Shown here: positions 11,595 through 30,546 of the stretch, one piece after another | Layout of the letters: the number at the start of each line of letters is the position of its first letter | Position numbering within the stretch: position 1 is the stretch's first letter | Assembly: GCF_029948125.1 (NCBI RefSeq) | Contig: NZ_JASAMB010000007.1 | Coordinates: 186,001 to 250,000, forward strand | DNA from: Catellatospora sp. KI3 | GTDB lineage: Bacteria > Actinomycetota > Actinomycetes > Mycobacteriales > Micromonosporaceae | Length of the DNA: 64,000 nt | Reading direction: 5' to 3' | Program-made: the position numbers and the translations under genes | Notes under the pieces: generated by a model | What the model saw: the letters and a program-made list of their open reading frames with translations, nothing else | Databases searched by the model: none | What the model was told of the DNA's origin: nothing

Positions 11595-11611
11595 CCGGAT
11601 CGGGCAGCAGG

Positions 11612-11638
11612 CGGCGCCCCCGTTCAACGGGGGCGCCG
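11612..11638. terminator. Hairpin terminator between convergent genes
   Basis: CGGCGCCCCCGTT and its exact complement enclose a single-base loop, and the downstream side runs into GTCCTTCGTTTCC. It lies 18 bases after the secreted repeat protein gene and faces the convergent WD-like gene. Confidence 0.7.
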
Positions 11639-11666
11639 TCCTTCGTTTCCCGGCCGTGCGATGGGT

Positions 11667-12971
11667 TTATTCGCCCCTGGGCGCCGACCGGTCGGCGGGC
11701 GGCAGCGCGTCCACGAAGACCGCGCTGATCGTCTCGGTGACGGTGACCAGTACGCGCCCGTCGGTGGAGAAGCCGCCCGCCGCCATCGCCGGTTCGGTCC
11801 ACAGGACGCGGCCGCGGCCGTCGAACAGGGCCGTGGCGTCGTCGTCCGCGGCGTACACCAGCGGGCCGCACTGCCCCCACACGGCGCGGGTGCAGACGGT
11901 GGCCAGCGGCGAGTCGCCGGTGAGCTTGGCGGGCAACCCCTGCGGCCGGACCGGTGCCGCGCCGCCGACCGCGTCCCCGTCGAGGGTGAGCAGCACCGCG
12001 GCGGGAGTCACCGGCGCGTCCTCGGCGCCTTCGCGGACACCGCCCGCGACCAGCAGGCCGCCGCCGTCGGGCGCGAAGGCCAGCGCGTTGACCCGCAGCA
12101 GCCCGCTGTCGTGCCGCAGCAGCTCCGCTCCGGAACCGGTGTCGCGGACCACGATCTCGCCCGCGCGGCCGGCGTGGGCCAGCCGCCGCCCGGTCGGATC
12201 GAGCGCCACCGGCCCCAGCGGATCGGCGGCCAGCTCAAGAACGACCTCGCCGGTGTACGGGTCCAGCACGCGCACGCCCCGCGCCGCCGAACCGGCCGCG
12301 ACCCGGCTGCCGTCGGCGCTGAAGCCGATCCGGACGGTGGTCCGCTCGGTGTCGAAGAAGTCGTCGTCCTCGTTCGGGCCGAGGTTCAGCTGCCACGCTT
12401 CGGTGCCCTCAGGCACCCGCCAGGCGTGCACCCGGCCCTCGACCGAGCTCACCGCGATCGTGCCGTCCGGGCTGAGCTGCGTGTCCAGCGCCTCGTCGTG
12501 GAAGCGCGCCCCGTCCAGCAGCATCGCGGACGGGGCCTGCGGCGCGGTGCCCCAGACCACGATGTCGCCGCCGTTGTGATGCCACTCGGCGGCGGCGGTC
12601 ACGACCAGCCAGCGCGGCTCGGCGGGGCAGGCCACGGAGGTGGCGCCGTGGTAGAAGTAGGCGAAGTCGTCGCCCTCGTCCTCCTCGTCGCGGCCGGTCT
12701 CGGCCGGACGTCCACTCTCGACGTCCTGGAGGTCGCCGAGCCGCCGCCAGGCCGCTAGGGCGTGCCACGGGTCGGCCTGGCCCGCGGCGTACCGCTGCCA
12801 CCAGTGGTCGGGCATCGGCCGCAGCCGGGGCGGCCAGGCCAGCAGCACCGGCGCCGCCTCGGCCAGGAGGTCGGCGGGGGCCTGCTCCAGCAGCGGCCAC
12901 GCCTGCTCCCAGGCCGGTGCGGACGGCTCGCCGGCGAGGATCGCCGCGAGGGTGGTCGGATCGCCGTCCAT
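11667..12971 (-). CDS. WD40/beta-propeller-like protein
   Basis: 434 residues. After an N-terminal helical part rich in Trp (about 1-75) come repeats with the LSPDGTIAVSS, FSADGSRVAAGS, LDPTGRRLAHAG, FAPDGGGLLVAGG and FSTDGRVLVTV signatures, about 40 residues apart. These are blades of a WD40-type propeller. There is no signal peptide, so it is cytoplasmic. I use the ATG at 12971 because GAAAGG sits six bases upstream. Propellers of this kind in actinomycetes usually serve as protein-interaction scaffolds; no partner is encoded next to it. Confidence 0.75.
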   Translation of the reverse strand: MDGDPTTLAAILAGEPSAPAWEQAWPLLEQAPADLLAEAAPVLLAWPPRLRPMPDHWWQRYAAGQADPWHALAAWRRLGDLQDVESGRPAETGRDEEDEGDDFAYFYHGATSVACPAEPRWLVVTAAAEWHHNGGDIVVWGTAPQAPSAMLLDGARFHDEALDTQLSPDGTIAVSSVEGRVHAWRVPEGTEAWQLNLGPNEDDDFFDTERTTVRIGFSADGSRVAAGSAARGVRVLDPYTGEVVLELAADPLGPVALDPTGRRLAHAGRAGEIVVRDTGSGAELLRHDSGLLRVNALAFAPDGGGLLVAGGVREGAEDAPVTPAAVLLTLDGDAVGGAAPVRPQGLPAKLTGDSPLATVCTRAVWGQCGPLVYAADDDATALFDGRGRVLWTEPAMAAGGFSTDGRVLVTVTETISAVFVDALPPADRSAPRGE

Positions 12972-18269: not shown

Positions 18270-18857
18270 TCAGGCCGGTACGGCGGCCTTCACCATGGTC
18301 AGAACGTGCTCCACGAGCGTGATGAGCACGTTCTTGACCGAGATGCGGTCGCGGGCGTCGCACAGCAGCACCGGCACGTGGCCGTCCACGTCCAGCGCCT
18401 CGCGCACCTGCTCGACGGTGTAGCGCTGCTCGCTGTCGAAGCAGTTGACCGCGATGACGAACGGCGTGCCGCGCTGCTCGAAGTAGTCGATCGCGGCGAA
18501 GGAGTCGGCCAGGCGGCGGGTGTCGGCCAGCACGACCGCGCCCAGGGCGCCGGTGGCCAGCTCGTCCCACAGGAACCAGAAGCGGTTCTGCCCGGGGGTG
18601 CCGAACAGGTACAGCACCAGGTGCGGGTTGATGGTGATCCGGCCGAAGTCCATCGCGACCGTGGTGGTCGTCTTCGTGGACACACCTGTGGTGTCGTCGG
18701 TGCCGACCCCGGCGGTGGTCAGGACCTCCTCGGTCCGCAGTGGACTGATCTCGCTGACGGCCCCGACGAGCGTGGTCTTGCCGGCGCCGAAGCCTCCGGC
18801 GACCAGGATCTTCAACGCCTGGGGGACCGGCGCGTGGTCAGAGCGCACGGAGTCCAT
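18270..18857 (-). CDS. cvnD: Conservon GTPase-like protein CvnD
   Basis: 195 residues. It has a P-loop GGFGAGKTTLVGAV at about 16-29, the switch region TTTTVAMDFGRI, the G3-like LFGTPGQNRFWFLW, VVLADTRR, and AVNCFDSE in place of NKxD. This is the Ras-like ATP/GTP-binding protein that closes cvn operons in Streptomyces and relatives. It overlaps cvnC by 20 bases. With CvnA-C it is thought to form a membrane-associated complex comparable to G-protein signalling. Confidence 0.92.
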   Translation of the reverse strand: MDSVRSDHAPVPQALKILVAGGFGAGKTTLVGAVSEISPLRTEEVLTTAGVGTDDTTGVSTKTTTTVAMDFGRITINPHLVLYLFGTPGQNRFWFLWDELATGALGAVVLADTRRLADSFAAIDYFEQRGTPFVIAVNCFDSEQRYTVEQVREALDVDGHVPVLLCDARDRISVKNVLITLVEHVLTMVKAAVPA

Positions 18858-19230
18858 GGATCACCGCCTGGAGGGTGTCGACATTCGGAAGGTGGTCGGT
18901 GGACGGCGGATCGTAACGGGCGATCAGACCGTCCTGGAGCAGGTCGCACAGCAGCACCCGGACCACGCCCAGGGGCAGGTCCACGCGTGAGGCGAGCTCG
19001 GCCAGGGCACGGGGCTCCTGGGTGAACGCCAGGATCGACTGGTGTTCGGGCGAGGGGGTGTCCGCGGCCAGAGACGCGGTCGCCACCACGTACGTGATGA
19101 GGTCGAAGTCGGTGGTCTTGGGCCGCACCCGGCCCCCGGTGACCATGTACGGACGCACCACCGGCCCGGCCTCGTGATCCCACCAGGCCGGGCCCTCATC
19201 GACTACCGGGTCGGTGGGGTCAGTGGACAT
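18838..19230 (-). CDS. cvnC: Conservon DUF742 protein CvnC
   Basis: 130 residues of the DUF742 family: EAGPVVRPYMVTGGRVRP near the start, then FDLITYVVATA, and the winged-helix-like ALAELASRVDLPLGVVRVLLCDLLQDGLI. The start at 19230 places the ATG 11 bases inside cvnB. It is the third component of the conservon and probably bridges the kinase-like and GTPase-like partners. Confidence 0.92.
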   Translation of the reverse strand: MSTDPTDPVVDEGPAWWDHEAGPVVRPYMVTGGRVRPKTTDFDLITYVVATASLAADTPSPEHQSILAFTQEPRALAELASRVDLPLGVVRVLLCDLLQDGLIARYDPPSTDHLPNVDTLQAVIHGLRAL

Positions 19231-19639
19231 CGGCACCCGGCCGCGACGGCGTGGCCAGATGCGTGCCGACGCGGGTGGCGAGCATGGCCATCTCGTACGC
19301 GAGGATGCCAAGGTCGATGTCGGGGTCGGCCAGCACGGCCAGGCAGGAGCCCTGACCGGCGGCGCTGACGAGCAGGAACGCCTCTTCCATCTCGACGATG
19401 GTCTGGCGCACCGGGCCGCCCTTGAACCGCTGGCCGGTCGCGCCGGCCAGGCTGGAGAAGCCCGAGGCGACCGCGGCCAGGTGCTCGGCGTCGTCCCGGG
19501 ACATGCCGGTGGAGGCGCCGGTGAGCAGGCCGTCGACGGAGAGCACGACGGCGCAGCGGGCCTGCGGCACTCGGGCGAGCAGGTCGTCGAGCAGCCAGTC
19601 GGTCGCGGGTCGGGTCGTCGTCGGTACCACGTCAGGCAC
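19220..19639 (-). CDS. cvnB: Conservon roadblock/LC7 protein CvnB
   Basis: 139 residues with the roadblock/LC7 fold: WLLDDLLARVPQARCAVVLSVDGLLTGASTGMSRDDAEHLAAVASGF, then QTIVEMEEAFLLVSAAGQGSCLAVLAD. Roadblock proteins commonly act as GTPase regulators, which fits the CvnD partner. It overlaps cvnA by eight bases and cvnC by eleven. Confidence 0.92.
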   Translation of the reverse strand: MPDVVPTTTRPATDWLLDDLLARVPQARCAVVLSVDGLLTGASTGMSRDDAEHLAAVASGFSSLAGATGQRFKGGPVRQTIVEMEEAFLLVSAAGQGSCLAVLADPDIDLGILAYEMAMLATRVGTHLATPSRPGADVH

Positions 19640-21944
19640 GTCCTTCCAGGGTGGGACTGTCTTCCAAGCCGGCGCTGTCCTGCGGCCGGCTGTGGCTCAC
19701 GGTGTCTTCCCCGTTGTCGGAGATCTCGGTGACGGCTTTGGCCCGCCCGCGCACGGTACCCGACTGGAACGCGGACATCATCGTCCGGACCTGGTCGGCA
19801 CTGCGGGCGCGGGGCGGTGCCGGATCCGTCGCGATGGAGAGCGTGGTGTCGTCCCCCACGGCGCCGGGGCTGCCCGCGGTGGCGGGTTCGGGAGCGGTGC
19901 TGCGGCGGACCCGTTTGGGCAGCAGCAGCGCGGCCTCCTCGTCGGTCTTGCTGGTGGTGCCGAGGTCTATGGTCTGCTCCTCGACCGGCGCCGCGACGGC
20001 GGGCGCCGCGGCCACGGCGGGCACGCGCGGGGCGGTGAGGACGGGCTCGGTGCGCACGGTGCCGTCGTTGAGCACGAGTTCGGCGGGGACGAGCACGACC
20101 GCCGTGATACCGCCGTACGACGAGGGCCGCAGGCGCACCGTGATGCCCTGCCGGGCGGCCAGCCGGGCCACCACCAGCAGGCCCAGCCGCGAGCTCTGCG
20201 CCGGGTCGAACGCGGGCGGCTCGGCCAGCTTCGCGTTGGCCTCCAGCAGCTCGGCGTCGCTCATGCCCAGGCCGCGGTCCTCCACGTGCAGCGCCAGTCC
20301 GGCGCCGACGACCTCGGCGAAGACCCGGACCCGGGTGTGCGGCGGGGCGAACGAGGTGGCGTTCTCCAGCAGCTCGGCGATGAGGTGGATCAGGTCGCCG
20401 ACGGCGCGGCCGACGATGGCCACGTCCGGCATGCGGTCGACGGTGACGCGCTGGTAGTCCTCGATCTCGGAGGTGGCGCCGCGGACCACGTCGATGGTCG
20501 GCACCGGGTGCCGCCAGCCCCGGCCGGGGGCCGCGCCGGCGAGGATGACCAGCGCCTCGGCGTGGCGGCGCATGCGGGTGGCCATGTGGTCGAGCCGGAA
20601 CAGGTCCTCCAGCTCCTGCGGCTCGGTGGTGCGCCGCTCCATCCGGTCCAGCAGGGTCAGCTGGCGGTGCAGCAGCGCCTGCGAGCGGCGGGCGATGTTG
20701 AGGAAGACCTCGCTGATGCCGCGGCGCAGGATCGCCTCGTCGACGGCGGCGCGTACGGCGGTGCGCTGCACGGCGCCGAAGGCGTGGCCCACCTGGCCGA
20801 CCTCGTCGGTGCCGACGGCGACCAGCGGCACTTCGGTCAGTGACGGGTCGTTGACGACGGCGCCGGGCTGGCGCAGGGCGGCGATGGCGCGCGGCAGGCG
20901 CTCGTGCGCCACCTCCAGCGCCGAGACCCGTAGGCGCTCCAGGCGCCGGACCACCGAGCGGCCGGTGCGCAGCGACAGCACCAGCGAGATGACGGCGCAG
21001 ATCAGGCCGAGCAGCCCGGAGGAGATGGTCTTGACGAAGGCGCCGATGCCGATCTCGTTGGCCAGGTCGGAGGTGGCGCCGGCGGCCGCGCCCTCGGCGG
21101 CGTCGGTCTGGGTGATCAGCGCGTCGGCGGTGCTGCGCCAGATCTTGGCGTCCAGCGGCAGCTTGCCGCCGGCCCGCGCGTTGGACAGCGACTCCTCCAT
21201 CGAGAACAGCGTGGTGTAGGTGTCGCTGGCGAAGATCTGCTTGAACGTCTCGCGGTGCGGGGAGGTCAGCGCGGCCTGCGCCTCCTCGAGCATCTGGCGG
21301 CGGGCGCCGATGACCCGCAGCACCGCGGTCTGCTCGGCGGTGGTGACCTTGCCGTCGGCCACGGCGCCGGTGACCACGGCGTCCTCGCGGGCCAGCAGCT
21401 CGCGGGTGCGGCTGATGGAGAACAGGCCGCGCGCGGACCGGGCCAGGGCGGGGTCGGCCAGGTCGGTCAGGGGCGAGAACGCCATGTACAGCGTGTCGAT
21501 GAGCGCCGAGTAGTCGCGCACGATCGCGGCGTTGTCGGCGCGCCCGGCGTCGATGTCGGCGCGGGTCTGCGGCAGCCCGTTGAGCGCGGTGAGGAACCCG
21601 TCCACCAGGCCCAGCTCGTGCGGCGAGAGGTCTTCGCGCAGTCCGCTGTCGGCGATGCGGCGGCGCAGGATCTGCTCGTCGGCATCGGTCTTCGCGCGCT
21701 GCTCGGTCAGCGCGGCCGAGCCGGGCTTCTCCGCCACCGACAGGCGGCGCTCCTGCTGCAGCTGCACCATCACGTGCTCGCCGTAGTTGCCGAACACCTG
21801 CTCGTACTGGCGGGCGTGGAGGAGGTTGAGGGCGCTGTCGGCGGTGACCGCGACTGCGAAGACGGACAGGCCGGTGATCGCTATCAGCGGGACCACAGCC
21901 AACGTCATGATCTTGGCGCGGATACTCCAGCCACGGTTTCTCAC
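19632..21944 (-). CDS. cvnA: Conservon sensor kinase-like protein CvnA
   Basis: About 770 residues. It has a transmembrane helix (TLAVVPLIAITGLSVFAVAV), a large extracytoplasmic nitrate/sulphite-sensing (NIT-like) domain, a second transmembrane helix (LGLICAVISLVLSL), a HAMP-like linker, and a GHKL ATPase with LIAELLENATSFAPP as N box and DRGLGM as G1, followed by a disordered tail. There is no ordinary HisKA phosphorylation site. I place the start at the GTG at 21944 because the family typically begins just before RNRGWSIRAKI and codons further upstream are poor in GC at third positions. An ATG at 22028 is the alternative and would add 28 residues. It heads cvnABCD. Confidence 0.85.
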   Translation of the reverse strand: MRNRGWSIRAKIMTLAVVPLIAITGLSVFAVAVTADSALNLLHARQYEQVFGNYGEHVMVQLQQERRLSVAEKPGSAALTEQRAKTDADEQILRRRIADSGLREDLSPHELGLVDGFLTALNGLPQTRADIDAGRADNAAIVRDYSALIDTLYMAFSPLTDLADPALARSARGLFSISRTRELLAREDAVVTGAVADGKVTTAEQTAVLRVIGARRQMLEEAQAALTSPHRETFKQIFASDTYTTLFSMEESLSNARAGGKLPLDAKIWRSTADALITQTDAAEGAAAGATSDLANEIGIGAFVKTISSGLLGLICAVISLVLSLRTGRSVVRRLERLRVSALEVAHERLPRAIAALRQPGAVVNDPSLTEVPLVAVGTDEVGQVGHAFGAVQRTAVRAAVDEAILRRGISEVFLNIARRSQALLHRQLTLLDRMERRTTEPQELEDLFRLDHMATRMRRHAEALVILAGAAPGRGWRHPVPTIDVVRGATSEIEDYQRVTVDRMPDVAIVGRAVGDLIHLIAELLENATSFAPPHTRVRVFAEVVGAGLALHVEDRGLGMSDAELLEANAKLAEPPAFDPAQSSRLGLLVVARLAARQGITVRLRPSSYGGITAVVLVPAELVLNDGTVRTEPVLTAPRVPAVAAAPAVAAPVEEQTIDLGTTSKTDEEAALLLPKRVRRSTAPEPATAGSPGAVGDDTTLSIATDPAPPRARSADQVRTMMSAFQSGTVRGRAKAVTEISDNGEDTVSHSRPQDSAGLEDSPTLEGRA

Positions 21945-22228
21945 ACTGACCACGTCCAAGGTACGGCGCACCACGGCATCGACACCGGGTCTGCGCGAAC
22001 CCGACCGACCCCCATCGGTTTGTGACATGCCACAGGGCGCTGTTCGACAATTGCCTTCGGGCCAAGAAACTAGCGGCCCGAGAGTGTTCCTGTCCACTGC
22101 GGTGGATGTCCACAGCAGACATGATCACTTATGGCGACGAAGGCGTTGCGCTGGGTACATCACCTTGGCACGGCCCGGCCCGCCCGGCAGACTGTCGCAC
22201 GGCCCCCCGCTGCTCCAGGGAGATCACT

Positions 22229-23032
22229 ATGGACACCCTCAGCCTCGTCTCGGCGATCCTCTCCGTGCTCGGCGCGGTCGTCGCGGGCGTCATGACGACC
22301 TGGTCGGCGAAGCGGGCCACCGTGTTCGAGCACCGGCTGGCCGAGCAGCGCCACCTGGAGACCAAGGCCGAGCAGGCGCAGGAGGTGCTCAGCCGCTACC
22401 GCGAACCGCTGCTGCTGGCCGCGTTCAGCCTCCAGTCGCGGCTGCACAACGCGTTCGGCGGCGACTACTTCCTGCACTTCCTCGACCACGACGACGACTC
22501 CGAGCGCCGCTACGCCCGCGACTACACCGTCTACGTGCTGGCCGAGTACCTCTGCTGGGTCGAGATCATCCGGCGCGAGATGCGCTTCCTGGACCTGGGC
22601 GACGACGAGAGCAACCGGGCGTTCACCCGCCACCTCGGCGCGGTCAGCACCCAGCTGTCGACGCTGAAGTACCCGCTGCCGCACTTCCGGCTGTTCCGCG
22701 GCCAGCAGCGCGCCCTCGGCGAGCTGTGCATGGTCAACGGGGCCAACGGCCGCAGCGACAGCATCACGTACCCGGCGTTCTGCTCCCGGCTGGACACCGA
22801 GCCCGAGTTCCGGCACTGGTTCGCGCGGCTGCGCGAGGACGTGGACGAGATCGTCAAGCTGCGCCGCGTCGGCTCGCCCGACGGCAACATCCGGCTGCTG
22901 CGGATCCAGCACGCGCTGATCGACCTCATCGACTTCCTCGACCCCGCCCGCACCCGCATCCCCGACGACCGCGCCAAGCTCGTCGAGCAGGCCGGATCCG
23001 TCCCAGCACAGGGCGCTGCGGCCGGGGCGTGA
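22229..23032 (+). CDS. Single-pass membrane protein of unknown function
   Basis: 267 residues. A hydrophobic N-terminal helix (about 4-24) is followed by a helical cytoplasmic region (KRATVFEHRLAEQRHLETKAEQAQEVLSRYREPL) and a conserved-looking globular part with several Trp and Cys (YLCWVEIIRREMRFLDLG, DTEPEFRHWFARLREDV). A strong ribosome site, CAGGGAG, precedes the ATG at 22229. It diverges from the conservon and ends 24 bases before the SWIM gene, but with no overlap, so whether it belongs to that cluster is unclear. I do not recognise a family. Confidence 0.75.
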   Translation: MDTLSLVSAILSVLGAVVAGVMTTWSAKRATVFEHRLAEQRHLETKAEQAQEVLSRYREPLLLAAFSLQSRLHNAFGGDYFLHFLDHDDDSERRYARDYTVYVLAEYLCWVEIIRREMRFLDLGDDESNRAFTRHLGAVSTQLSTLKYPLPHFRLFRGQQRALGELCMVNGANGRSDSITYPAFCSRLDTEPEFRHWFARLREDVDEIVKLRRVGSPDGNIRLLRIQHALIDLIDFLDPARTRIPDDRAKLVEQAGSVPAQGAAAGA

Positions 23033-23056
23033 CCGTCGCTGTCGGACAGGGTGGCT

Positions 23057-24391
23057 ATGGTGCCGCCCATGTCCGAAGCAACGATGCCGCCCTGGACGGC
23101 GGAGCAGGTGCAGGCGCTCGCGCCCGACGCCTCCTCCTTCGCCTCGGCGCGCAAGCTCGCCGCCTCCGGCGGCTGGAGCACCACCGGCACCGGCGGGGAG
23201 CCGGCCGGGTTGTGGGGCCTGTGCAAGGGCAGCGGGAGCAGTCCGTACCAGATCTGCGTGGACCTCACCGAGCCCGCGTACAAGTGCTCCTGCCCCAGCC
23301 GCAAGTTCCCGTGCAAGCACGCGCTCGCGCTGCTGCTGCGGTGGTCCGGCGGCCAGGTGGCCGCCACCGAGCCACCGGACTTCATGACGCAGTGGACCAC
23401 CGCCCGCGGTGCCCGCGCCGACAAGAAGGCCGAACGGGCCGCCGCCCCGCGCACCGAGGCCCAGGAGCGGGCGGCGCAGCGCCGCGCCGACAAGCGTGCC
23501 GAGTCGGTCGCGGGCGGCATCACCGAGCTGCGGGTATGGCTGGCCGACCAGATCCGGCACGGCATCGCCGGGCTGGACCAGTCCGGCTACAAGCCGTTCG
23601 AGCAGGTGGCTGCCCGCCTCGTCGACGCGCAGGCGCCCGGCCTGGCCGCGGCGGTGCGCCGCCTGGCCCCGCTGCCCAGCTCGGGTGCGGACTGGCAGCA
23701 GCGGCTGCTGTCCGAGCTGTCGCTGCTGCACCTGCTCACCGGTGCCGCGAGCAGCGATGACCTGCCCGAGGAGCTGGCCGCCACGGTCAGGGCCAGGGTC
23801 GGCGCCCCGGCCACCTCGGAGCAGGTGCTGGCGACCCCGCCGGTCCGCGACACCTGGCAGGTCCTCGGCGTACGCGACGAGGCCGAGGAGAAGCTCACCA
23901 GCCGCCGGGTATGGCTGCGCGGCCGCGACACCGGCCGCGCCGCCCTGATCCTGTCCTTCGCCGCCCCCGGCCAGGCCCTGCCCGTCGACCTGGTCCTGGG
24001 CACCGAGGTCGACGCCGAGCTGTGCTTCCATCCGGGTGCCACCCCGCTGCGCGCGCTGGTGGCCGCCCGGCACGGCGCCCCGCGGCAGTGCCCGCGACCG
24101 GGCCCGGTCCTGCCGGCGGCGCAGGCGCTGCGCGAAGTGGCCGCCGCGCTGGCCGGCGACCCGTGGCTGACCGGCTGGCCGCTGCTGCTGCGGGGCACGC
24201 TCGTGCCGGGCACGCCCTGGCACCTGGTCGACGCCGACGGCGACGCGCTGGCGCTGGACCCGGCGGCGGGCGACCCGTGGCGCACCGCCGCGATCGCGGG
24301 CGGGCAGCCGGTCACGCTGGCCGCCGAGTGGACCCCGGCCGGACTGCGTCCGCTGGCCGTGTACGCCGACGAAGAGGTGGTGCGCGCATGA
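23057..24391 (+). CDS. SWIM zinc-finger protein (YehQ-like)
   Basis: 444 residues. The SWIM motif CxCx6CxH is Cys77, Cys79, Cys86 and His88, within CSCPSRKFPCKH. SWIM fingers bind DNA or protein. A basic Ala/Arg helix follows (about 117-150) and then a long helical and beta C-terminal part without a name. The ATG at 23057 has AGGGTGG upstream; GTG 23051 and ATG 23069 are alternatives. It is first of five genes joined by start/stop overlaps with DUF5691, MoxR, DUF5682 and VWA genes. E. coli yehQ is the closest named SWIM partner of such a set as far as I recall. Confidence 0.85.
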   Translation: MVPPMSEATMPPWTAEQVQALAPDASSFASARKLAASGGWSTTGTGGEPAGLWGLCKGSGSSPYQICVDLTEPAYKCSCPSRKFPCKHALALLLRWSGGQVAATEPPDFMTQWTTARGARADKKAERAAAPRTEAQERAAQRRADKRAESVAGGITELRVWLADQIRHGIAGLDQSGYKPFEQVAARLVDAQAPGLAAAVRRLAPLPSSGADWQQRLLSELSLLHLLTGAASSDDLPEELAATVRARVGAPATSEQVLATPPVRDTWQVLGVRDEAEEKLTSRRVWLRGRDTGRAALILSFAAPGQALPVDLVLGTEVDAELCFHPGATPLRALVAARHGAPRQCPRPGPVLPAAQALREVAAALAGDPWLTGWPLLLRGTLVPGTPWHLVDADGDALALDPAAGDPWRTAAIAGGQPVTLAAEWTPAGLRPLAVYADEEVVRA

Positions 24392-25881
24392 CCAGCCCCG
24401 ACACCACCACCGCCCTGTGGCCGCAGCTGCTGTCCAGCGCCCTGGTCGGCACCGACCGCCGCCCCTGCGCCCCCGACGCGGTGCCGCAGGTGCTGGCTGA
24501 GGCCGTCCCGGCGGGTCCGCTGGACCCCGACGGGCTGCTCACCGCCGCCGCCGTGGTCACCGTGGCCCGGCGCGCCGGTCAGCGGCCCGCGCAGGTGGAG
24601 GCGCCCGCGCCCGCCCCGGCGGAGACCGCGCGCTACGCCCCGGCCGCCGCCCAGCAGCGGCTGGGCCGCCTGCTGTCCGGTTCGGAGGCCGAACTGGACC
24701 GCCAGGTGCAGCACGAACTGCTCGGCGAATGGCTGCGGCTGGCCGCCGGGCGCGACCTGCTCGCCGCACCGCAGCACCTGGTGGCGCTGCTGGAGCAGGC
24801 CGACTCGAGCCAGCGGCAGCTGGTGCGCGCCGTCGGCGGCGCCCGCCTGCAGTGGCTGTGCGCCGAAGGCCTCGGCCGCTGGTCGTGGGCCATGACCGCA
24901 CCCGAGGCCGCGCCGGGGGCCGAGGACTGGGAGACCGGCCGGATCGAGGCCCGCGCCGCGCACCTGGCCCGCCTGCGCGGCACCGACCCGGCCGCCGGGC
25001 GGGACCTGCTGGCCGAGGCGTGGCCGCAGGAGAAGGCCGCCGACCTGGCCGCCCTCATCGAGGCGTGCGCCACCGGCCTCGGCCTCGACGACGAGCCGTG
25101 GCTGGAGAAGGCCCTCGACGACCGGCGCACCCAGATCCGCGAGGCGGCCGCCCGGCTGCTGGGGCAGCTGCCGGGCTCGGCATACCGGCAGCGCATGGCC
25201 GACCGGGCGCTGGCCTGCGTGGAGGCGGTCAAGGCGCGGCGGCTGGAAGTGACGCCGCCCGCCGAGTGCGACGCCGGGATGCGCCGCGACGGCATCGTGG
25301 CCAAGCCCCCGACCGGCACCGGCGAGCGGGCCCACTGGCTCGCCCAGATCATCGCCGCCGCGCCGCTGGACTGCTGGGCCGCGATCGACGCCGACCCGGC
25401 CGCCGTGCTCAACCGCAAGGCCTCCGACGACTGGGGCCCGGTGGTGCGCAAGGGCCTGGCCCGAGCCGCGGTCGCCCAGCGCGACGGCGGATGGGCCAAG
25501 GCGCTGCTGTATGCCGGGTTCACCGACGCCGGCGAGCTGCACGCCCAGCTCGTGGCGGTGCTGCCGCCCGACGAGCTCGCCGAGACCGTCGCCCGGCACC
25601 TGCGCCGCAACGTCGACAGCGGGGTACGGCTGCTGCCCGCGCTGCCCGACATCTGGCCCGCCGTCGTCTGCGAGGCGGTGCTGGAAGCCCTGCGCGACCG
25701 GGAACGCTCCAGCGGCCTGCGGTACCAGCTGCTGCGCCGCGCCGAGACCGGCCTCGACCCCGCCTACGCGCCGCGGCTGGCGGCGCTGCTCGACGACGTT
25801 CCGCAGCTGCACGTCCAGGTCCTCGCCCGACTGCACACCATCATCGCCATCCGGCACGACATCCACCGGGAGTTCGCATGA
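24388..25881 (+). CDS. DUF5691-family protein
   Basis: 497 residues, predicted mainly helical, with an early LLSSALVGTDRRP motif that I associate with DUF5691 and HEAT-like helical pairs later (KALDDRRTQIREAAARLLGQLP). There is no signal peptide and no catalytic motif that I can see. Its ATG overlaps the SWIM gene TGA (ATGA at 24388-24391). It is probably a scaffold in the complex formed with MoxR and VWA proteins. Confidence 0.8.
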   Translation: MTSPDTTTALWPQLLSSALVGTDRRPCAPDAVPQVLAEAVPAGPLDPDGLLTAAAVVTVARRAGQRPAQVEAPAPAPAETARYAPAAAQQRLGRLLSGSEAELDRQVQHELLGEWLRLAAGRDLLAAPQHLVALLEQADSSQRQLVRAVGGARLQWLCAEGLGRWSWAMTAPEAAPGAEDWETGRIEARAAHLARLRGTDPAAGRDLLAEAWPQEKAADLAALIEACATGLGLDDEPWLEKALDDRRTQIREAAARLLGQLPGSAYRQRMADRALACVEAVKARRLEVTPPAECDAGMRRDGIVAKPPTGTGERAHWLAQIIAAAPLDCWAAIDADPAAVLNRKASDDWGPVVRKGLARAAVAQRDGGWAKALLYAGFTDAGELHAQLVAVLPPDELAETVARHLRRNVDSGVRLLPALPDIWPAVVCEAVLEALRDRERSSGLRYQLLRRAETGLDPAYAPRLAALLDDVPQLHVQVLARLHTIIAIRHDIHREFA

Positions 25882-26963
25882 CCGCCACCATCGACACGCC
25901 GACCGTGCTGCGTCCGCACGCCGAGCAGTCGTACGCCCACGAGCTCGCGGCCCTGGCCGCCGCCGACGACAAGCCCCGCCCGCCGGGCTGGCGCCTGTCC
26001 CCGCAGGCCGTGGTGACGTACCTGCTCGGCGACGGCGACCAGATCAGCCCCAAGTACATCGGCCCGCGCCGGCTGATGGAGGTCGCGGTGGCGACCCTGG
26101 CCACCGACCGGGCGCTGCTGCTGCTCGGCGTGCCCGGCACCGCCAAGACCTGGGTGTCGGAGCACCTGGCCGCCGCGATCAGCGGCGACTCGACGCTGCT
26201 GGTCCAGGGCACCGCGGGCACCCCCGAAGAGGCCATCCGGTACGGCTGGAACTACGCCCGCCTGCTGTCGGAGGGCCCGACCCCGGCCGCGGTGGTGCCC
26301 AGCCCGCTGATGGTGGCCATGCGCACCGGCGCGATCGCCCGGGTCGAGGAGCTGACCCGCGTCCCGTCCGACGTGCAGGACACCCTGATCACGATCCTGT
26401 CCGAGAAGACGCTGCCGGTGCCGGAGCTCGGCGACGAGGTGATGGCGGTCAAGGGCTTCAACGTGATCGCCACCGCCAACGACCGCGACCGGGGCGTCAA
26501 CGAGCTGTCCAGCGCGCTGCGCCGCCGCTTCAACACCGTGGTGCTGCCGGTGCCCGGCTCGGTCGACGAGGAGGTCGACATCGTGCAGCGCCGGGTCGCC
26601 TCGCTGGGCCGCTCGCTGGAGCTGCCGGAGGTCCCCGACGCGATCAACGAGATCCGCCGCGTGGTGACCGTGTTCCGGGAGCTGCGGGAGGGGCTGACGG
26701 CGGACGGCCGTACCAAGCTGAAGAGCCCGAGCGGCACGCTGTCCACCGCCGAGGCGATCTCCGTGATGACCAGCGGCATGGCCCTGGCCTCGCACTTCGG
26801 CGACGGCGTGGTCCGCGCGGCCGACGTGGCCGCGGGCATCCGCGGCGCGGTGGTCCGCGACCCCGTCACCGACGCGGTCATCTGGCGGGAGTACCTGGAG
26901 ACCGTGGCGCGCGAGCGCGACGGCTGGAAGGACTTCTACCGGGCCGCGCGGGAGGCGGAGTGA
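25878..26963 (+). CDS. MoxR-family AAA+ ATPase (YehL-like)
   Basis: 361 residues. The Walker A motif is GVPGTAKT at residues 84-91. IARVEELTRVPSDVQDTLITILSEK is the Walker B/helix region, where the usual DE reads VEE. FNVIATANDRDRG is sensor 1 and SSALRRRFN the arginine-finger region. MoxR ATPases act as chaperones with VWA partners in metal insertion or complex remodelling. It overlaps both neighbours by four bases. A C-terminal lid ends at EAE. Confidence 0.9.
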   Translation: MTATIDTPTVLRPHAEQSYAHELAALAAADDKPRPPGWRLSPQAVVTYLLGDGDQISPKYIGPRRLMEVAVATLATDRALLLLGVPGTAKTWVSEHLAAAISGDSTLLVQGTAGTPEEAIRYGWNYARLLSEGPTPAAVVPSPLMVAMRTGAIARVEELTRVPSDVQDTLITILSEKTLPVPELGDEVMAVKGFNVIATANDRDRGVNELSSALRRRFNTVVLPVPGSVDEEVDIVQRRVASLGRSLELPEVPDAINEIRRVVTVFRELREGLTADGRTKLKSPSGTLSTAEAISVMTSGMALASHFGDGVVRAADVAAGIRGAVVRDPVTDAVIWREYLETVARERDGWKDFYRAAREAE

Positions 26964-29251
26964 CCAGCGACCGCGTGCACGTCTACGGCATCCGCCACCA
27001 CGGTCCGGGCTCGGCCCGGGCCCTGGTGCGGGCCCTGGGCGAGCTGCGCCCCGACCTGATCCTGGTCGAGGGCCCGCCCGAGGCCGACGGCCTGGTGGCG
27101 CTGGCCGCCCACGAGGGCCTGCAGCCGCCGGTGGCGCTGCTGGCGTACCCGACAGGCACCGGCACCACGCCGGGCGAGGGCGCGTCGTTCTGGCCGTTCG
27201 CGGTGTTCTCGCCCGAATGGCAGGCGCTGCGGCACGCCGTCACCCACGACGTGCCGCTGCGCTTCTGCGACCTGCCCGCCGGGCACCGCTTCGCCGCCCG
27301 CGCCGCGGCTCAGGCACCCGCCGAGCCGACCGCCGACGCCGGGTCTGAGGCGGGCACAGTCGAAACGGACCCGGCCGACCCCGCCGAGCTGCGGGTCGAC
27401 CCGATCGCCGGGCTCGCCCACGCGGCCGGGTACGACGACGCCGAACGCTGGTGGGAGGACGTCATCGAGCACCGCCGCGACGGCAACCCGTTCGCGGCGG
27501 TCGCCGAGGCGATGGCCGAGGTGCGGGCCGGCAGCCCCGCGATCGGCGAGGACCTGGTCCGTGAGGCGTACATGCGGCAGACGCTGCGCGCGGCGCTGCG
27601 CGAGGGGCACCAGCGCATCGCCGTCGTCTGCGGCGCCTGGCACGTACCCGCCCTGACCGGCGACCTGCCCCCCGAGAAGGCCGACAAGGAACTGCTCAAG
27701 GGCCTGCCGACGGTGCCGACCGCGATCACCTGGGTGCCGTGGACGCACGGGCGGCTCGCCTCGTGGAGCGGCTACGGTGCTGGGGTCACCTCGCCCGGCT
27801 GGTACCACCACCTGTTCACCGCCGAGGACCATCCGGTCGAGCGGTGGCTGGTCGGCGTCGCCGGGGTGCTGCGCGGGCAGGACCTGCCCGTGTCCAGCGC
27901 CCACGTCATCGAGGCGACGCGCCTGGCCGACACCCTGGCGGTGCTGCGCGGGCGGCCGCTGCCCGGCCTGGCCGAGGTCACCGAGGCGACCCGGGCGGTG
28001 CTGTGCGACGGGGACGAGACCCGGCTGGAGCTGATCCAGCGGCAGGTCGTGGTGGGGGAGCGGCTCGGTGCCGTACCCGACGACACCCCGTCGGTGCCGC
28101 TGGCCCGCGACGTCACCGCCCAGGCCAAGCGGCTGCGCCTGACGCCTGAGGCCCTGGTCCGCGACCTGGACCTCGACCTGCGCAAACCCAACGACCTGGA
28201 GCGCAGCCGCCTGCTGCACCGGCTGCGGCTGCTCGGCGTCGACTGGGGCCGCCCCGCCCAGCGGGCGCGCGGCGGCAAGGGCACCTTCTGGGAGTCCTGG
28301 CAGCTGCAGTGGCAGCCCGAGTACGCCGTCGACCTCATCAGCGCCAGCGCGTACGGCGTGACGGTCGAGCAGGCCGCCACCGCCAAGGTCGTCGAGTCCT
28401 GCCCCGCGGCCGACCTGGCCGGGCTCACCAACCTGCTGGAGTCGTGCCTGCTCGCGCAGCTGCCGCAGGCCCAGCCGGCGGTGCTGAAGGCACTGGCCGA
28501 CCGGGCCGCCGTCGACACCGACGTCGCCCAGCTCATGGCCGCCGTGCCCGCGCTGGCCCGGTCGCTGCGCTACGGCGACGTCCGCGCCACCAGCACCGAC
28601 GCCCTGGCCGAGGTCCTGTCCGGACTGGTCACCCGCATCCGGCTGGGGTTGCCCGGCGCGGTCACCGGCCTCGACGACGACGCCGCCCGCGCCCTGCGCA
28701 TCCACCTCGACGGCACCCACGAGGCCCTCAACCTGCTCGGAGCCGAGCTGCCGCTGCGGCAGGAGTGGCTGGACACCCTGTCCCGCCTCATCGACCGGCC
28801 GGACCTGCCCGGCCTGCTCGCCGGGCGGCTGCTGCGGCTGCTGCGCGACGCGGGCATCCTCGACGCCGACGCGGTCGAGCTGCGGCTGGCCCGCTCGCTC
28901 ACCGTCGGCGTGCCCGCCCCGTCGGCCGCCGCTTACGTCGAGGGCTTCATCGCCGGAGGCGGGCTGCTGCTGGTGCACGACGAGGCACTGCTGTCCCTGG
29001 TGGACCGGTGGCTGACCGGGCTGGGGCCGGACACGTTCACGGCGGTGCTGCCGCTGCTGCGGCGTACCTTCGGCGCCTTCGCCGCCCCGGAGCGCCGCTC
29101 GGTCGGCGAACGCGTACGCCACTTGGGCAGCGGCGAACCCGGCCGCCCCGCGTCCGGTGACGACGATCTGGCCGCACTGGACCCCGACCGGGTCGCCCTC
29201 GTGCTGCCGACCCTGAAACTGCTGGTCACCGCTGGAGGAAGTCAGTCATGA
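26960..29251 (+). CDS. DUF5682 protein, TraB/Tiki-like N-terminal domain
   Basis: 763 residues starting at a GTG that overlaps the MoxR stop. The N-terminal about 270 residues carry GIRHHGPGS (10-18), LILVEGPPEADGL and, later, YMRQTLRAALREGHQRIAVVCGAWHVPAL. This HxxGP...EGPP...GAWH layout resembles the TraB/Tiki/ChaN/EreA superfamily of putative metal-dependent hydrolases. The rest (about 300-763) is helical and resembles the YehM-type part. Its role in the cluster is unknown; a protease or esterase activity targeted by the MoxR-VWA partners is an inference. Confidence 0.82.
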   Translation: MTSDRVHVYGIRHHGPGSARALVRALGELRPDLILVEGPPEADGLVALAAHEGLQPPVALLAYPTGTGTTPGEGASFWPFAVFSPEWQALRHAVTHDVPLRFCDLPAGHRFAARAAAQAPAEPTADAGSEAGTVETDPADPAELRVDPIAGLAHAAGYDDAERWWEDVIEHRRDGNPFAAVAEAMAEVRAGSPAIGEDLVREAYMRQTLRAALREGHQRIAVVCGAWHVPALTGDLPPEKADKELLKGLPTVPTAITWVPWTHGRLASWSGYGAGVTSPGWYHHLFTAEDHPVERWLVGVAGVLRGQDLPVSSAHVIEATRLADTLAVLRGRPLPGLAEVTEATRAVLCDGDETRLELIQRQVVVGERLGAVPDDTPSVPLARDVTAQAKRLRLTPEALVRDLDLDLRKPNDLERSRLLHRLRLLGVDWGRPAQRARGGKGTFWESWQLQWQPEYAVDLISASAYGVTVEQAATAKVVESCPAADLAGLTNLLESCLLAQLPQAQPAVLKALADRAAVDTDVAQLMAAVPALARSLRYGDVRATSTDALAEVLSGLVTRIRLGLPGAVTGLDDDAARALRIHLDGTHEALNLLGAELPLRQEWLDTLSRLIDRPDLPGLLAGRLLRLLRDAGILDADAVELRLARSLTVGVPAPSAAAYVEGFIAGGGLLLVHDEALLSLVDRWLTGLGPDTFTAVLPLLRRTFGAFAAPERRSVGERVRHLGSGEPGRPASGDDDLAALDPDRVALVLPTLKLLVTAGGSQS

Positions 29252-30396
29252 GCGACGAGGAGCGGCTGCGCCGCTGGCGACTGGTGCTCGGCGGCGACGG
29301 CGACGGCACCGGCGTACGCCTGTCCGGAACGGACAGCGGCATGGACGACGCCCTGGGCGCCCTCTACCGCGGCGAGGGCGACGGGGGCGGCAGCGGCCGC
29401 AGCGCCGGGCTGGGCGGCTCGGCACCGAAGGTGGCCCGCTGGCTCGGCGACATCCGGCAGTACTTCCCGTCGACCGTCGTACAGGTCATGCAGGCCGACG
29501 CGATCGAGCGGCTCAACCTGACCCGGCTGCTGGTCGAACCGGAGATGCTGGAGGCGGTCGAGCCGGACGTGCACCTGGTCGGCACCCTGCTGTCACTGAA
29601 CAAGGTGATGCCGGACAAGGCCCGCGCCACCGCGCGCATGGTGGTGGCGAAGGTCGTCGCCGAACTGGAGCGGCGGGTCGCCAACAAGACCCGGGCCATG
29701 GTCACCGGCGCGCTCAACCGCGCCGCCCGGATCAACCGGCCCCGCCACCGCGACATCGACTGGCAGCGCACCATCCGCGCCAACCTCAAGCACTACCAGG
29801 CCGAACACCGCACCATCGTGCCGGAGCGCCTGATCGGGTACGGCCGGCAGACCCGGGCGGTGCAGCGCGACGTGGTGCTGTGCGTGGACCAGTCGGGGTC
29901 GATGGCCGCGTCGGTCGTCTACTCCGGGGTGTTCGCCGCGGTGCTCGCGTCGATGAAGACGCTGCGCACGTCGCTGGTCGTGTTCGACACCGCGGTCGTG
30001 GACCTGACCGACCAGCTGCACGACCCGGTCGAGGTGCTGTTCGGCACCCAGCTGGGCGGCGGCACCGACATCAACCGCGCCATCGGCTACTGCCAGGGTC
30101 TGGTCACCCGTCCGCGCGACAGCATCTTCATCCTCATCAGCGACCTGTACGAGGGCGGGGTGCGCGCGGAGATGCTGCGCCGGGTCGCCGCGATGACGGC
30201 GGCGGGGGTGCAGGTCATCGTGCTGCTGGCGCTGTCGGATGAGGGACAGCCCGCGTACGACCACGGCAACGCGGCCGCGCTCGCGGCGATGGGGGTGCCG
30301 TCGTTCGCCTGCACGCCCGACGCGTTCCCGGAACTCATGGCCGCGGCCATCGAGCGGCGTGATCTCGGGCCGCTGATCGAGAAACTCAAGGGCTGA
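29248..30396 (+). CDS. VWA-domain protein (YehP/CoxE-like)
   Basis: 382 residues. The N-terminal part is helical with RWLGDIRQYFPSTVVQVMQADAIERL; the C-terminal VWA domain begins near residue 208. The MIDAS metal site is complete: DQSGS at 214-218, the later Thr in GGGTDINRA, and an Asp in ILISDLYEGG. VWA proteins of this class pair with MoxR ATPases to act on a client. Its ATG overlaps the DUF5682 stop by four bases. It is the last gene of the unit and is followed by a strong terminator. Confidence 0.9.
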   Translation: MSDEERLRRWRLVLGGDGDGTGVRLSGTDSGMDDALGALYRGEGDGGGSGRSAGLGGSAPKVARWLGDIRQYFPSTVVQVMQADAIERLNLTRLLVEPEMLEAVEPDVHLVGTLLSLNKVMPDKARATARMVVAKVVAELERRVANKTRAMVTGALNRAARINRPRHRDIDWQRTIRANLKHYQAEHRTIVPERLIGYGRQTRAVQRDVVLCVDQSGSMAASVVYSGVFAAVLASMKTLRTSLVVFDTAVVDLTDQLHDPVEVLFGTQLGGGTDINRAIGYCQGLVTRPRDSIFILISDLYEGGVRAEMLRRVAAMTAAGVQVIVLLALSDEGQPAYDHGNAAALAAMGVPSFACTPDAFPELMAAAIERRDLGPLIEKLKG

Positions 30397-30415
30397 GCGT
30401 TTTCGCAGCTCACGG

Positions 30416-30461
30416 GATCCGGCCGCGCTGACCTGGGGAGGTTGACGGGCGCGGCCGGATC
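30416..30461. terminator. Perfect 13-bp hairpin
   Basis: GATCCGGCCGCGC (30416-30428) pairs exactly with 30449-30461. It closes the five-gene cluster and lies about 85 bases before the stop of the convergent membrane protein gene. Confidence 0.65.
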
Positions 30462-30546
30462 ACTCTGATCACACCGCCCGGTGACGCTGCGGTCAAGTCG
30501 TCCGGTCGTACGGCACCGGCAGGCTGACCGGTGGCTGGGAGTTCCC

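What the first reader, a model, noticed from the sequence alone, without database searches (positions are those of the whole stretch)
23057..30396. Five-gene MoxR-VWA-SWIM-DUF5691-DUF5682 cluster, all joined by start/stop overlaps
Seen: SWIM finger, DUF5691-like, MoxR ATPase, DUF5682-like and VWA genes, each pair overlapping by ATGA or GTGA, so the five proteins are made in step. Known: MoxR and VWA proteins work as pairs that remodel a client, and E. coli yehLMPQ holds a similar set of unknown role. Inferred: these proteins form one complex in which the SWIM protein binds nucleic acid or a client, MoxR and VWA remodel it, and the DUF5682 protein acts on it. A conflict or repair role is possible but unproven.
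Basis: partly seen in the sequence, partly recalled or inferred. Interest (0 to 1): 0.78.

Follow-up and report, generated by a model that had tools for sequence, protein, structure and literature searches.

The report
DNA-damage-linked MoxR-VWA hydrolase operon
Five overlapping bacterial genes, related to a little-studied E. coli gene set, appear to encode an ATP-driven protein-remodelling machine built around a protease-like enzyme, and in several bacterial groups they carry control switches like those of DNA-repair genes.

Summary
In detail: five + strand genes (SWIM, DUF5691, MoxR, DUF5682, VWA) overlap by 4 bp each. Of 80 fetched homologous loci, 69 had enough flank, and 66 of those carry all five genes. 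Natural SWIM-DUF5691 and DUF5682-VWA fusions support one complex. E. coli yehI-yehLMPQ is the sister lineage, with DUF4132 in place of DUF5691.

Two things appear new. First, the DUF5682 N-terminal domain is TraB/Tiki-like (profile match 96.5%, P 1e-9; weak with other profiles) with near-invariant G-x2-H ... E ... R ... G-x2-H, so a predicted hydrolase. Second, copies carry DNA-damage promoters. In Actinobacteria the PafBC/RecA-NDp motif lies upstream (42 of 75 rows with 2 or fewer mismatches; 0.45% of random stretches). In one Streptomyces-like genome that motif precedes recA, uvrA, uvrB, ruvC and ung. One Deinococcus copy carries an RDRM. The window has a degenerate variant that also precedes the genome's own recA.

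Best reading: a DNA-damage-induced MoxR-VWA machine working with a TraB-like hydrolase. The substrate is unknown, no damage box was found in Proteobacteria, and nothing was tested experimentally.

The parts
23039..23061 (+). Predicted RecA-NDp/PafBC-type promoter CTGTCGGAC-N8-TATGGT, 7 nt before ATG 23069 (degenerate)
   Evidence: Matches the upper-case positions of the published consensus tTGTCRgtg-8nt-TannnT; 3 mismatches to the full consensus; one of 2 core-only matches in the 64 kb window; the same variant precedes the genome's own recA
23069..24391 (+). SWIM zinc-finger protein (YehQ-related); alternative start 23057
   Evidence: Pfam SWIM 5.5e-7; finger CSCPSRKFPCKH; profile match to YehQ family, prob 90, P 1.6e-6 over 98 columns
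23285..23320 (+). SWIM finger CxC...CxH (residues 77-88 counted from 23057)
   Evidence: motif present in 67 of 74 relatives
24388..25881 (+). DUF5691 protein, perhaps a HEAT-like adaptor
   Evidence: Pfam 3.3e-120; fused to SWIM in 12 of 80 loci. The HEAT-like reading is inference from sequence, no structure was predicted
25878..26963 (+). MoxR AAA+ ATPase, YehL subfamily
   Evidence: AAA_5 3.7e-37; 43% over 353 aa to E. coli YehL, only a 110-aa match at E 0.030 to RavA; Walker A GVPGTAKT
26960..29251 (+). DUF5682 protein (YehM homologue): TraB-like N domain plus C-terminal helical part
   Evidence: Pfam 9.1e-274; model pLDDT 85.7, pTM 0.81
26960..27739 (+). TraB/Tiki-like domain of DUF5682 (aa about 1-260)
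   Evidence: hhalign vs TraB profile prob 96.5, P 9.8e-10 over 230 columns; best viral-library fold hit is a TraB family protein, E 0.017
26987..27001 (+). Motif 1 G10-I-R-H13-H14
   Evidence: H13 and H14 identical in 105 of 105 sequences of five groups; G10 is G in 95 and P in 10
27068..27070 (+). E37, candidate catalytic Glu
   Evidence: 105 of 105
27560..27643 (+). Motif 2 R201-E202...M205...G225-A-W-H228
   Evidence: 105 of 105 at R201, E202, M205, G225, H228; compare R249...G272-x2-H275 of nine GumN-type proteins
29248..30396 (+). VWA (CoxE-like) protein, YehP homologue
   Evidence: VWA_CoxE 2.9e-55; 36% over 365 aa to YehP
29887..29901 (+). MIDAS DQSGS
   Evidence: D-x-S-G-S in 73 of 74 relatives
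30410..30468 (+). Strong hairpin after the last gene, likely end of the transcript
   Evidence: -43.3 kcal/mol, z -4.4; no T tract, the terminator scan called none

Best explanation
The operon encodes one DNA-damage-induced protein machine. MoxR (AAA+ motor) and VWA (MIDAS adaptor) form the remodelling pair. DUF5682 is the effector, a TraB/Tiki-type hydrolase (most likely a peptidase) with a helical docking tail. SWIM-DUF5691 is a recognition module that brings in the target, probably a nucleoprotein or damaged-DNA complex. Damage activates the PafBC-type promoter; the machine then pulls on or positions a client protein so that the TraB-like site can cut it, clearing or processing proteins at damaged DNA. 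Shown by computation: gene set and order, fusions, TraB-like domain, damage-type promoter motifs in Actinobacteria and one Deinococcus. Inferred: actual induction, assembly, catalysis, client and site of action.
For: Unit: 66 of 69 loci with all five genes; the same order in Deinococcus and Rhizobium, with SWIM-DUF5691 fused in Hymenobacter; SWIM-DUF5691 in one ORF in 12 of 80 loci; DUF5682-VWA fusion confirmed by Pfam in L034 and seen with my profiles in L036 and L044. Enzyme: TraB profile score 75.9, prob 96.5; four other families of the operon score 29.8 or less, 50 column shuffles 23.2 or less; eleven residues identical in 105 of 105. Regulation: TTGTCRGTG in 23 of 73 upstream regions, shuffles mean 0.34, max 2; 2 or fewer mismatches to the full consensus in 42 of 75 rows vs 0.45% of random stretches; in-frame start 6-8 nt after the box in 48 of 59 rows; 21 exact sites in G023, 11 of them before repair, recombination or replication-type genes incl. 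recA, uvrA, uvrB, ruvC, ung, and 2 before DUF5682 operons; in the window's genome recA, a DnaN-like gene and this operon are among 7 variant sites; exact site before the DUF4132-type operon of G128; RDRM score 14.1 in L136, best of 40,340 positions, above the 13.3 median of known sites. Literature passages: DUF4132 protein DRA0166 and WGR protein DR2173 rise after mitomycin C, IrrE/DdrO-dependent (PMC8533742).
Against: No exact LexA box in the 20 kb around E. coli yehI/yehL, and none exact at the first gene of the other Pseudomonadota and Hymenobacter loci checked, only four one-mismatch sites just inside ORFs; damage control may be a clade-specific add-on. The window site has 3 mismatches to the full consensus and G000 has no exact site. 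Four of the 7 variant sites in G000 do not head known repair genes and the reversed control gives 3. Three fusion-type operons and three of four C89-type operons tested have no exact site. The GumN-based profile test was weak (prob 23%), one tool comparison gave 0.7%, and the clear TraB-proper test was the third one tried. Foldseek gave nothing at E 0.001 or better in PDB or viral libraries; the best PDB match of the N domain is a Tetrahymena complex IV chain (E 0.021). In 2 of 43 members PF22448 scored better (0.00056) than PF01963 (0.029) did. The RDRM rests on one species. The set also occurs in 36 plasmid-collection records, 9 of them typed mobilizable or conjugative, and two PHROGs match, so some mobility is possible. 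No interaction or activity data.
Confidence: 0.58

Rival explanations
1. DUF5682 is the client, not a partner: MoxR-VWA matures or loads metal into a TraB-like enzyme (as MoxR pairs activate dedicated enzymes), with SWIM-DUF5691 as assembly factors. The mature enzyme acts elsewhere, for example on a small molecule or signal peptide, and is needed under genotoxic stress.
For: MoxR pairs are described as chaperone-like factors for maturation of dedicated complexes (PMC3893208 passages). The invariant His/Glu set suits a metal or hydrolase site. A DUF5682-VWA fusion fits client-adaptor as well as effector-adaptor.
Against: The adaptor pair SWIM-DUF5691 is as conserved in the sample as the enzyme and looks excessive for simple maturation (inference). 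TTGTCAGTG before the MoxR unit in 16 of 16 divergent loci, besides sites before the SWIM unit in many of them, suggests that all parts are wanted together.
Confidence: 0.22
2. A conserved stress or housekeeping proteostasis system whose damage induction in Actinobacteria and Deinococcus is secondary; the core job concerns metal, envelope or redox protein quality.
For: Core in E. coli (5162 of 5426 genomes) without an exact LexA box. yehM mutated in copper-exposed E. coli (PMC12409786 passages). Shared chromosomal neighbours in Streptomycetaceae and Catenulispora loci.
Against: Unrelated damage-type motifs in two phyla and on type A, type B and one C89-type operon of Streptomyces-like genomes.
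Confidence: 0.15
3. An anti-phage or conflict system of the MoxR-VWA ternary kind.
For: MoxR-VWA cores occur in described conflict systems (PMC7159879 passages); patchy in the phylum sample (21 of 296); found on some plasmids.
Against: PADLOC hits only at E 0.011 or weaker; no relative in the viral-contig scan and one unverified scaffold in the phage collection; 5162 of 5426 E. coli genomes; no variable effector module, the same five genes across phyla.
Confidence: 0.05

Closest known systems
E. coli yehI-yehL-yehM-yehP-yehQ (MoxR YehL subfamily)
   Same: Homologous MoxR, DUF5682 and VWA; SWIM protein related beyond the finger
   Different: E. coli type has DUF4132 (YehI), with a WGR domain in 2 of 4 relatives scanned, and no DUF5691; SWIM is last; no exact LexA box found
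RavA-ViaA (MoxR RavA subfamily)
   Same: MoxR plus VWA pair
   Different: Window MoxR and VWA match RavA/ViaA only over short weak stretches (E 0.030 and 0.007) against 1.5e-81 and 3.5e-74 for YehL/YehP; no hydrolase gene lies beside ravA-viaA in the annotation seen
MoxR-vWA ternary conflict systems (VMAP, iSTAND, FtsH, beta-propeller)
   Same: MoxR-vWA core
   Different: Third components differ (PMC7159879 passages); bpMoxR hit below cut-off (22.3 vs 27 bits); no variable effectors seen
TraB/PrgY/GumN and Tiki/Ere superfamily
   Same: G-x2-H, E, R, G-x2-H order and spacing; profile homology to TraB
   Different: DUF5682 adds a second His (H14) and a large helical C-terminal region; PF01963 hits only 2 of 43 members, best E 0.029
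p97-SPRTN or other AAA+-protease pairs for DNA-protein lesions
   Same: Works-like analogy only: AAA+ remodeller plus protease under DNA damage (recalled)
   Different: No homology claimed; client untested

Membership tests
MoxR YehL subfamily system | MoxR closer to YehL than to RavA | tested here: met
   43% over 353 aa, 1.5e-81 vs 0.030 to RavA
MoxR YehL subfamily system | Neighbouring DUF5682, VWA and SWIM genes | tested here: met
MoxR YehL subfamily system | Fifth partner DUF4132 | tested here: not met
   DUF5691 instead; no convincing profile similarity to YehI (P 0.04)
TraB/Tiki hydrolase superfamily | Two G-x2-H motifs with an intervening Glu | tested here: met
   G10-x2-H13, E37, G225-x2-H228 in the window; His and Glu 105 of 105, first G 95 of 105; same set in 9 GumN-type sequences
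TraB/Tiki hydrolase superfamily | Sequence-profile homology | tested here: met
   prob 96.5 vs TraB; weak vs GumN
TraB/Tiki hydrolase superfamily | Parallel-sheet core fold like BcR135/ChaN | tested here: inconclusive
   TraB protein is the best viral-library hit, E 0.017; BcR135 and ChaN appear only at E 0.77-3.0 in PDB
TraB/Tiki hydrolase superfamily | Hydrolase activity | not testable with these tools
   no assay
PafBC/RecA-NDp regulon | tTGTCRgtg-8nt-TannnT promoter, in actinobacterial relatives | tested here: met
   16 of 75 rows exact, 42 of 75 with 2 or fewer mismatches
PafBC/RecA-NDp regulon | Same promoter in the window itself | tested here: inconclusive
   3 mismatches to the full consensus, core letters matched, variant shared with the genome's recA
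PafBC/RecA-NDp regulon | PafBC-dependent induction by DNA damage | not testable with these tools
   needs expression data
DdrO/RDR regulon (Deinococcus) | RDRM near the promoter | tested here: met
   L136 4741-4757 at the end of a TTGACA-16-TACAAT promoter; one species only
Anti-phage defence system | Match to known defence models, or patchy spread within a species | tested here: not met

The most novel reading that the evidence does not exclude
A widespread, previously unassigned DNA-damage-response machine: a MoxR-VWA motor that feeds chromatin- or DNA-bound proteins to a TraB/Tiki-type protease (DUF5682), targeted by SWIM plus DUF5691 or WGR-DUF4132 adaptors; a bacterial counterpart in function to AAA+/protease pairs that clear DNA-protein lesions. 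E. coli yehI-yehLMPQ would be its proteobacterial branch.
Probability: 0.3. Interest if true: 0.9.

Novelty: new variant of a known kind. Interest (0 to 1): 0.72.

Why it matters
It gives a testable function to families now called 'unknown' (DUF5682, DUF5691, DUF4132) and to a core E. coli operon for which I found no functional study among the listed results (open-licence papers only; searches list 20 of 969 and 20 of 155). It names an enzyme class with candidate residues, and a condition (DNA damage) under which to look. If right, it adds an AAA+-driven protease-like machine to bacterial DNA-damage responses and links MoxR-VWA chaperones to them.

Tried and rejected
Phage defence: PADLOC gave only IetA and MTase_II models at E 0.011-0.046; 26 viral-contig stretches matched the peptide patterns but none encoded a relative; one phage record is an unverified faecal scaffold. 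Against a simple 'not mobile' view: two PHROGs match DUF5682 and VWA and 36 plasmid-collection records hold DUF5682, many of them large replicons. DUF5691 and DUF4132 as homologues: not supported (P 0.04). GumN-based profiles as TraB test: weak; only the TraB-proper profile was clear. In that test 3 of 114 DUF5682 sequences (L035, L037, L047) were dropped because the start motif was not found by my pattern. Foldseek with the full model was swamped by helical repeats. Solved-structure sequence searches: no hit with the DUF5682 profile; with the GumN-type profile only 7 designed-looking proteins, best E 0.0023. LexA-type boxes: none exact in the E. coli region; not enriched in the 73 regions (Cheo-type 0, alpha-type 1, gamma-type 1, cyanobacterial type 0); a Cheo-type scan of the window found nothing at the operon. 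Six patterns were tried, two of them versions of the PafBC motif; only that motif stood out. Conserved outside neighbours: only clade-specific synteny. Two PF01963 genome sets gave 0 of 81 and 12 of 79 genomes; the second supplied part of the TraB-proper profile. In one search the frame scanned for L233 was not the VWA frame; its identity rests.
Full report
What is there. Five ORFs on the + strand, SWIM 23057/23069-24391, DUF5691 24388-25881, MoxR 25878-26963, DUF5682 26960-29251 (GTG start) and VWA 29248-30396, overlap by four bases at each junction. Pfam assigns all five. Walker A (GVPGTAKT), MIDAS (DQSGS, GGTD) and the SWIM finger (CSCPSRKFPCKH) are intact. Across relatives, Walker A is present in 76 of 76 MoxR proteins, D-x-S-G-S in 73 of 74 VWA proteins, GGT[DE] in 71 of 74, and the finger in 67 of 74 SWIM proteins. 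A strong hairpin follows the last gene (30410-30468), without a T tract.

Conservation of the unit. Of the 80, 69 had enough flank, by my rule of 4.3 kb upstream and 1.4 kb downstream of the DUF5682 match. Of those, 66 carry all five genes: 55 collinear, and 11 with DUF5691-SWIM on the other strand. The three misses are L109 (DUF5691 not found, SWIM farther away), L116 (DUF5682 alone) and L129 (VWA not found, short downstream flank). The 11 loci without room were left out of the count. In one ORF, SWIM and DUF5691 are fused in 12 of 80 loci, in L046 and L050 (Pfam recognises the SWIM finger only in L050), and in Hymenobacter L137. DUF5682 and VWA are fused in L034 by Pfam and in L036 and L044 by my own profiles. 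The collinear order also occurs in Deinococcus taeanensis L136 and Rhizobium L138, and in Methylosinus L139 with a broken VWA frame. In a sample of 296 genomes of the phylum, DUF5682 occurs in 21 and DUF5691 above its cut-off in 18, all 18 within the 21; G124, G204 and G259 have DUF5682 without it, and three further DUF5691 matches below cut-off lie in genomes without DUF5682.

Two lineages. E. coli YehL, YehM and YehP are homologues of the window MoxR (43%), DUF5682 (27%) and VWA (36%). The YehQ family matches the window SWIM family beyond the finger (prob 90, P 1.6e-6). Of 398 genomes sampled from the phylum of G296 (the genome of the Thiofilum locus L112), 14 have DUF5682. I fetched 14 regions from 13 of them. 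Six (L194-L199) show the window order. Six (L186-L189, L191, L193) show DUF4132-MoxR-DUF5682-VWA followed by a YehQ-like gene, the yehI-yehLMPQ order; in five of these six the YehQ-like match is weak (27-40 bits). L192 is a variant with two DUF4132 genes, and L190 is cut by the contig end. DUF4132 carries a WGR domain in L188 and L192, 2 of 4 relatives scanned. yehLMPQ is core in E. coli: 5162 of 5426 genomes cover at least 80% of it, with 2 of 5322 places on plasmids. DUF5682 also occurs in 36 records of the plasmid collection, 27 typed non-mobilizable, 5 mobilizable and 4 conjugative.

The enzyme. A structure model of DUF5682 (pLDDT 85.7, pTM 0.81) shows an N-terminal alpha/beta domain and a long helical C-terminal part; the N domain alone gives pLDDT 81.0, pTM 0.79. 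Against a profile of ten TraB proteins, the N-domain profile (111 sequences) aligns over 230 columns with prob 96.5 and P 9.8e-10 (score 75.9). The other four protein families of the operon score 16.7-29.8 against the same TraB profile, 50 column shuffles at most 23.2, and the reversed alignment 18.6. This was the third profile test: against the GumN-type profile the match is weak (score 32.7, prob 23%, four controls 19.4 or less, 30 shuffles 18.1 or less), and the tool's own comparison of A4 with A5 gave only 0.7%. Two of 43 members hit PF01963, best E 0.029, and two hit RepB_primase_C at 0.00056. The best viral-library structure match is a TraB family protein (E 0.017, prob 1.00). PDB matches never reach E 0.001; the best for the N domain is a Tetrahymena complex IV chain (E 0.021), and BcR135 and ChaN, named as Tiki-superfamily structures in PMC6254334 (passages), appear at E 0.77 to 3.0. 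The motif is G10-x2-H13, E37, R201, G225-x2-H228, against G48-x2-H51, E77, R249, G272-x2-H275 in nine GumN-type sequences. H13, H14, E37, S84, E86, D104, R201, E202, M205, G225 and H228 are identical in 105 of 105 sequences of five groups, including two paralog groups; G10 is G in 95 and P in 10 (pooled sequences outside the five groups were not tabulated). I conclude that DUF5682 is a TraB/Tiki-type hydrolase with a docking tail; activity is inferred.

The switch. Of six damage-box patterns, TTGTCRGTG stood out: it occurs in 23 of 73 regions upstream of the SWIM domain, shuffles mean 0.34, maximum 2. The published P1 consensus is tTGTCRgtg-8nt-TannnT (PMC5656591, passage). PafBC acts through the RecA-NDp motif in the DNA damage response (PMC6789036, passages). 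Scoring the whole consensus in the 93 bases up to the SWIM domain gives 16 exact, 42 with at most two and 59 with at most three mismatches, of 75 rows (74 loci with a SWIM match plus the window; L117 had too little sequence). Random stretches give 0.45% and 2.4%. Of the 59, 48 have an in-frame start codon 6-8 nt after the box. The 42 rows span 18 named genera and one family-level MAG, though Streptomyces supplies many. The non-actinobacterial rows L076, L101, L112 and L131 show 4 to 7 mismatches. In the 16 loci where SWIM is divergent, TTGTCAGTG also stands 82-249 bases before the MoxR domain in all 16 (read from the listing).

Validation. Downstream genes include ung, ruvC, a Hel308-like helicase, uvrA, uvrB, ogt, recD2, uvrD, a DnaN-like gene, recA and a DEAD helicase (11 repair, recombination or replication-type genes), rpsF and a sigma factor. 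Two more sites lie before the SWIM gene of this operon (L227, at the place of L043; no Pfam hit at 1e-5) and before the VWA ORF of the more distant DUF5682 operon (L233, at the place of L037). L217, L221, L223, L225 and L232 had no family, and L234 was not scanned. An exact site also lies 78 bases before the DUF4132 ORF start used in the E. coli-type operon of G128. Three fusion-type operons and the C89-type operons of G000, G204 and G235 have no exact site (G204 has a one-mismatch variant). The window's genome has no exact site. The variant TGTCGKAC-N8-TAN3T occurs 7 times there, reversed control 3: before recA, before a DnaN-like gene, and at window 23040-23061 before this operon. The remaining four are before an ABC transporter gene, a glyoxalase-like gene, an ORF without a family, and one place not scanned. 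With the published capital letters only, the 64 kb window has two matches, one of them here.

A second phylum. In D. taeanensis L136 an RDRM-like site (4741-4757) begins on the last base of the -10 box of a TTGACA-16-TACAAT promoter and ends 19 bases before the SWIM start. With a matrix from 34 D. radiodurans sites (Table 2 of PMC8533742, section part read) it scores 14.1, the best of 40,340 positions; apart from its own reverse strand (13.8) the next is 9.4. Known sites run from 6.0 to 16.8, median 13.3. In D. radiodurans, the DUF4132 protein DRA0166 and the WGR protein DR2173 rise after mitomycin C and not in an irrE mutant (same paper, passages). These are not shown to sit in a MoxR operon.

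Mechanism and limits. The simplest account is a damage-induced machine with a MoxR-VWA motor, a TraB-like hydrolase effector, and SWIM-DUF5691 (or DUF4132/WGR) for targeting. No exact LexA box was found in the E. coli region or at the other Pseudomonadota loci checked, so the damage link is unproven in Proteobacteria. Induction, assembly, activity, substrate and phenotype are untested. Searches of the held library for DUF5682 (no paper), yeh gene names (2 papers; some searches listed of 969 and of 155), MoxR with YehL (4 papers, passages of one seen), MoxR with TraB (2 papers, listing only) and DUF4132, WGR or YehI in pairs (2 papers, passages seen) showed no functional study of this operon; most subscription papers are not in that library.

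Noticed in passing
L034 (G000:C78) and L035 (G000:C89): The same genome has two more DUF5682 systems: MoxR plus a fused DUF5682-VWA protein of 1297 aa, and a VWA-MoxR-DUF5682 set whose diverged DUF5682 keeps the eleven invariant residues while G10, R12, P39 and R189 differ.
   Followed up: partly
L038 (G128): A Streptomyces-like genome carries the E. coli-type DUF4132-MoxR-DUF5682-VWA-SWIM operon with an exact RecA-NDp site, besides the window type.
   Followed up: partly
L188, L192: WGR domain fused to DUF4132 in the yehI slot, a possible nucleic-acid or ADP-ribose link.
   Followed up: no
L140 (MT835988.1): A record labelled Bacteriophage sp. (UNVERIFIED, faecal) holds MoxR, DUF5682 and VWA genes; probably a bacterial scaffold.
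   Followed up: partly
L139 (Methylosinus pOB3b3) 11220-12388: The VWA reading frame is broken into three overlapping pieces; described only.
   Followed up: no
L102-L130 (Streptomycetaceae) and Catenulispora loci: The operon sits near genes that look like succinyl-CoA ligase, a B12-binding protein and a PcrA-type helicase in 13-16 loci (names by eye).
   Followed up: no
window 18838-22128: Minus-strand set that looks like a conservon (histidine kinase, Roadblock, DUF742-like) next to the operon; named by eye, not tested.
   Followed up: no
window 22022-23032: 336-aa plus-strand ORF just upstream with no Pfam family; ends before the predicted promoter.
   Followed up: partly
L233 (G023:C1:8309548): Exact RecA-NDp site 28 bases before the VWA ORF start used for the C89-type DUF5682 paralog operon, so more than one DUF5682 system may be damage-controlled.
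   Followed up: yes
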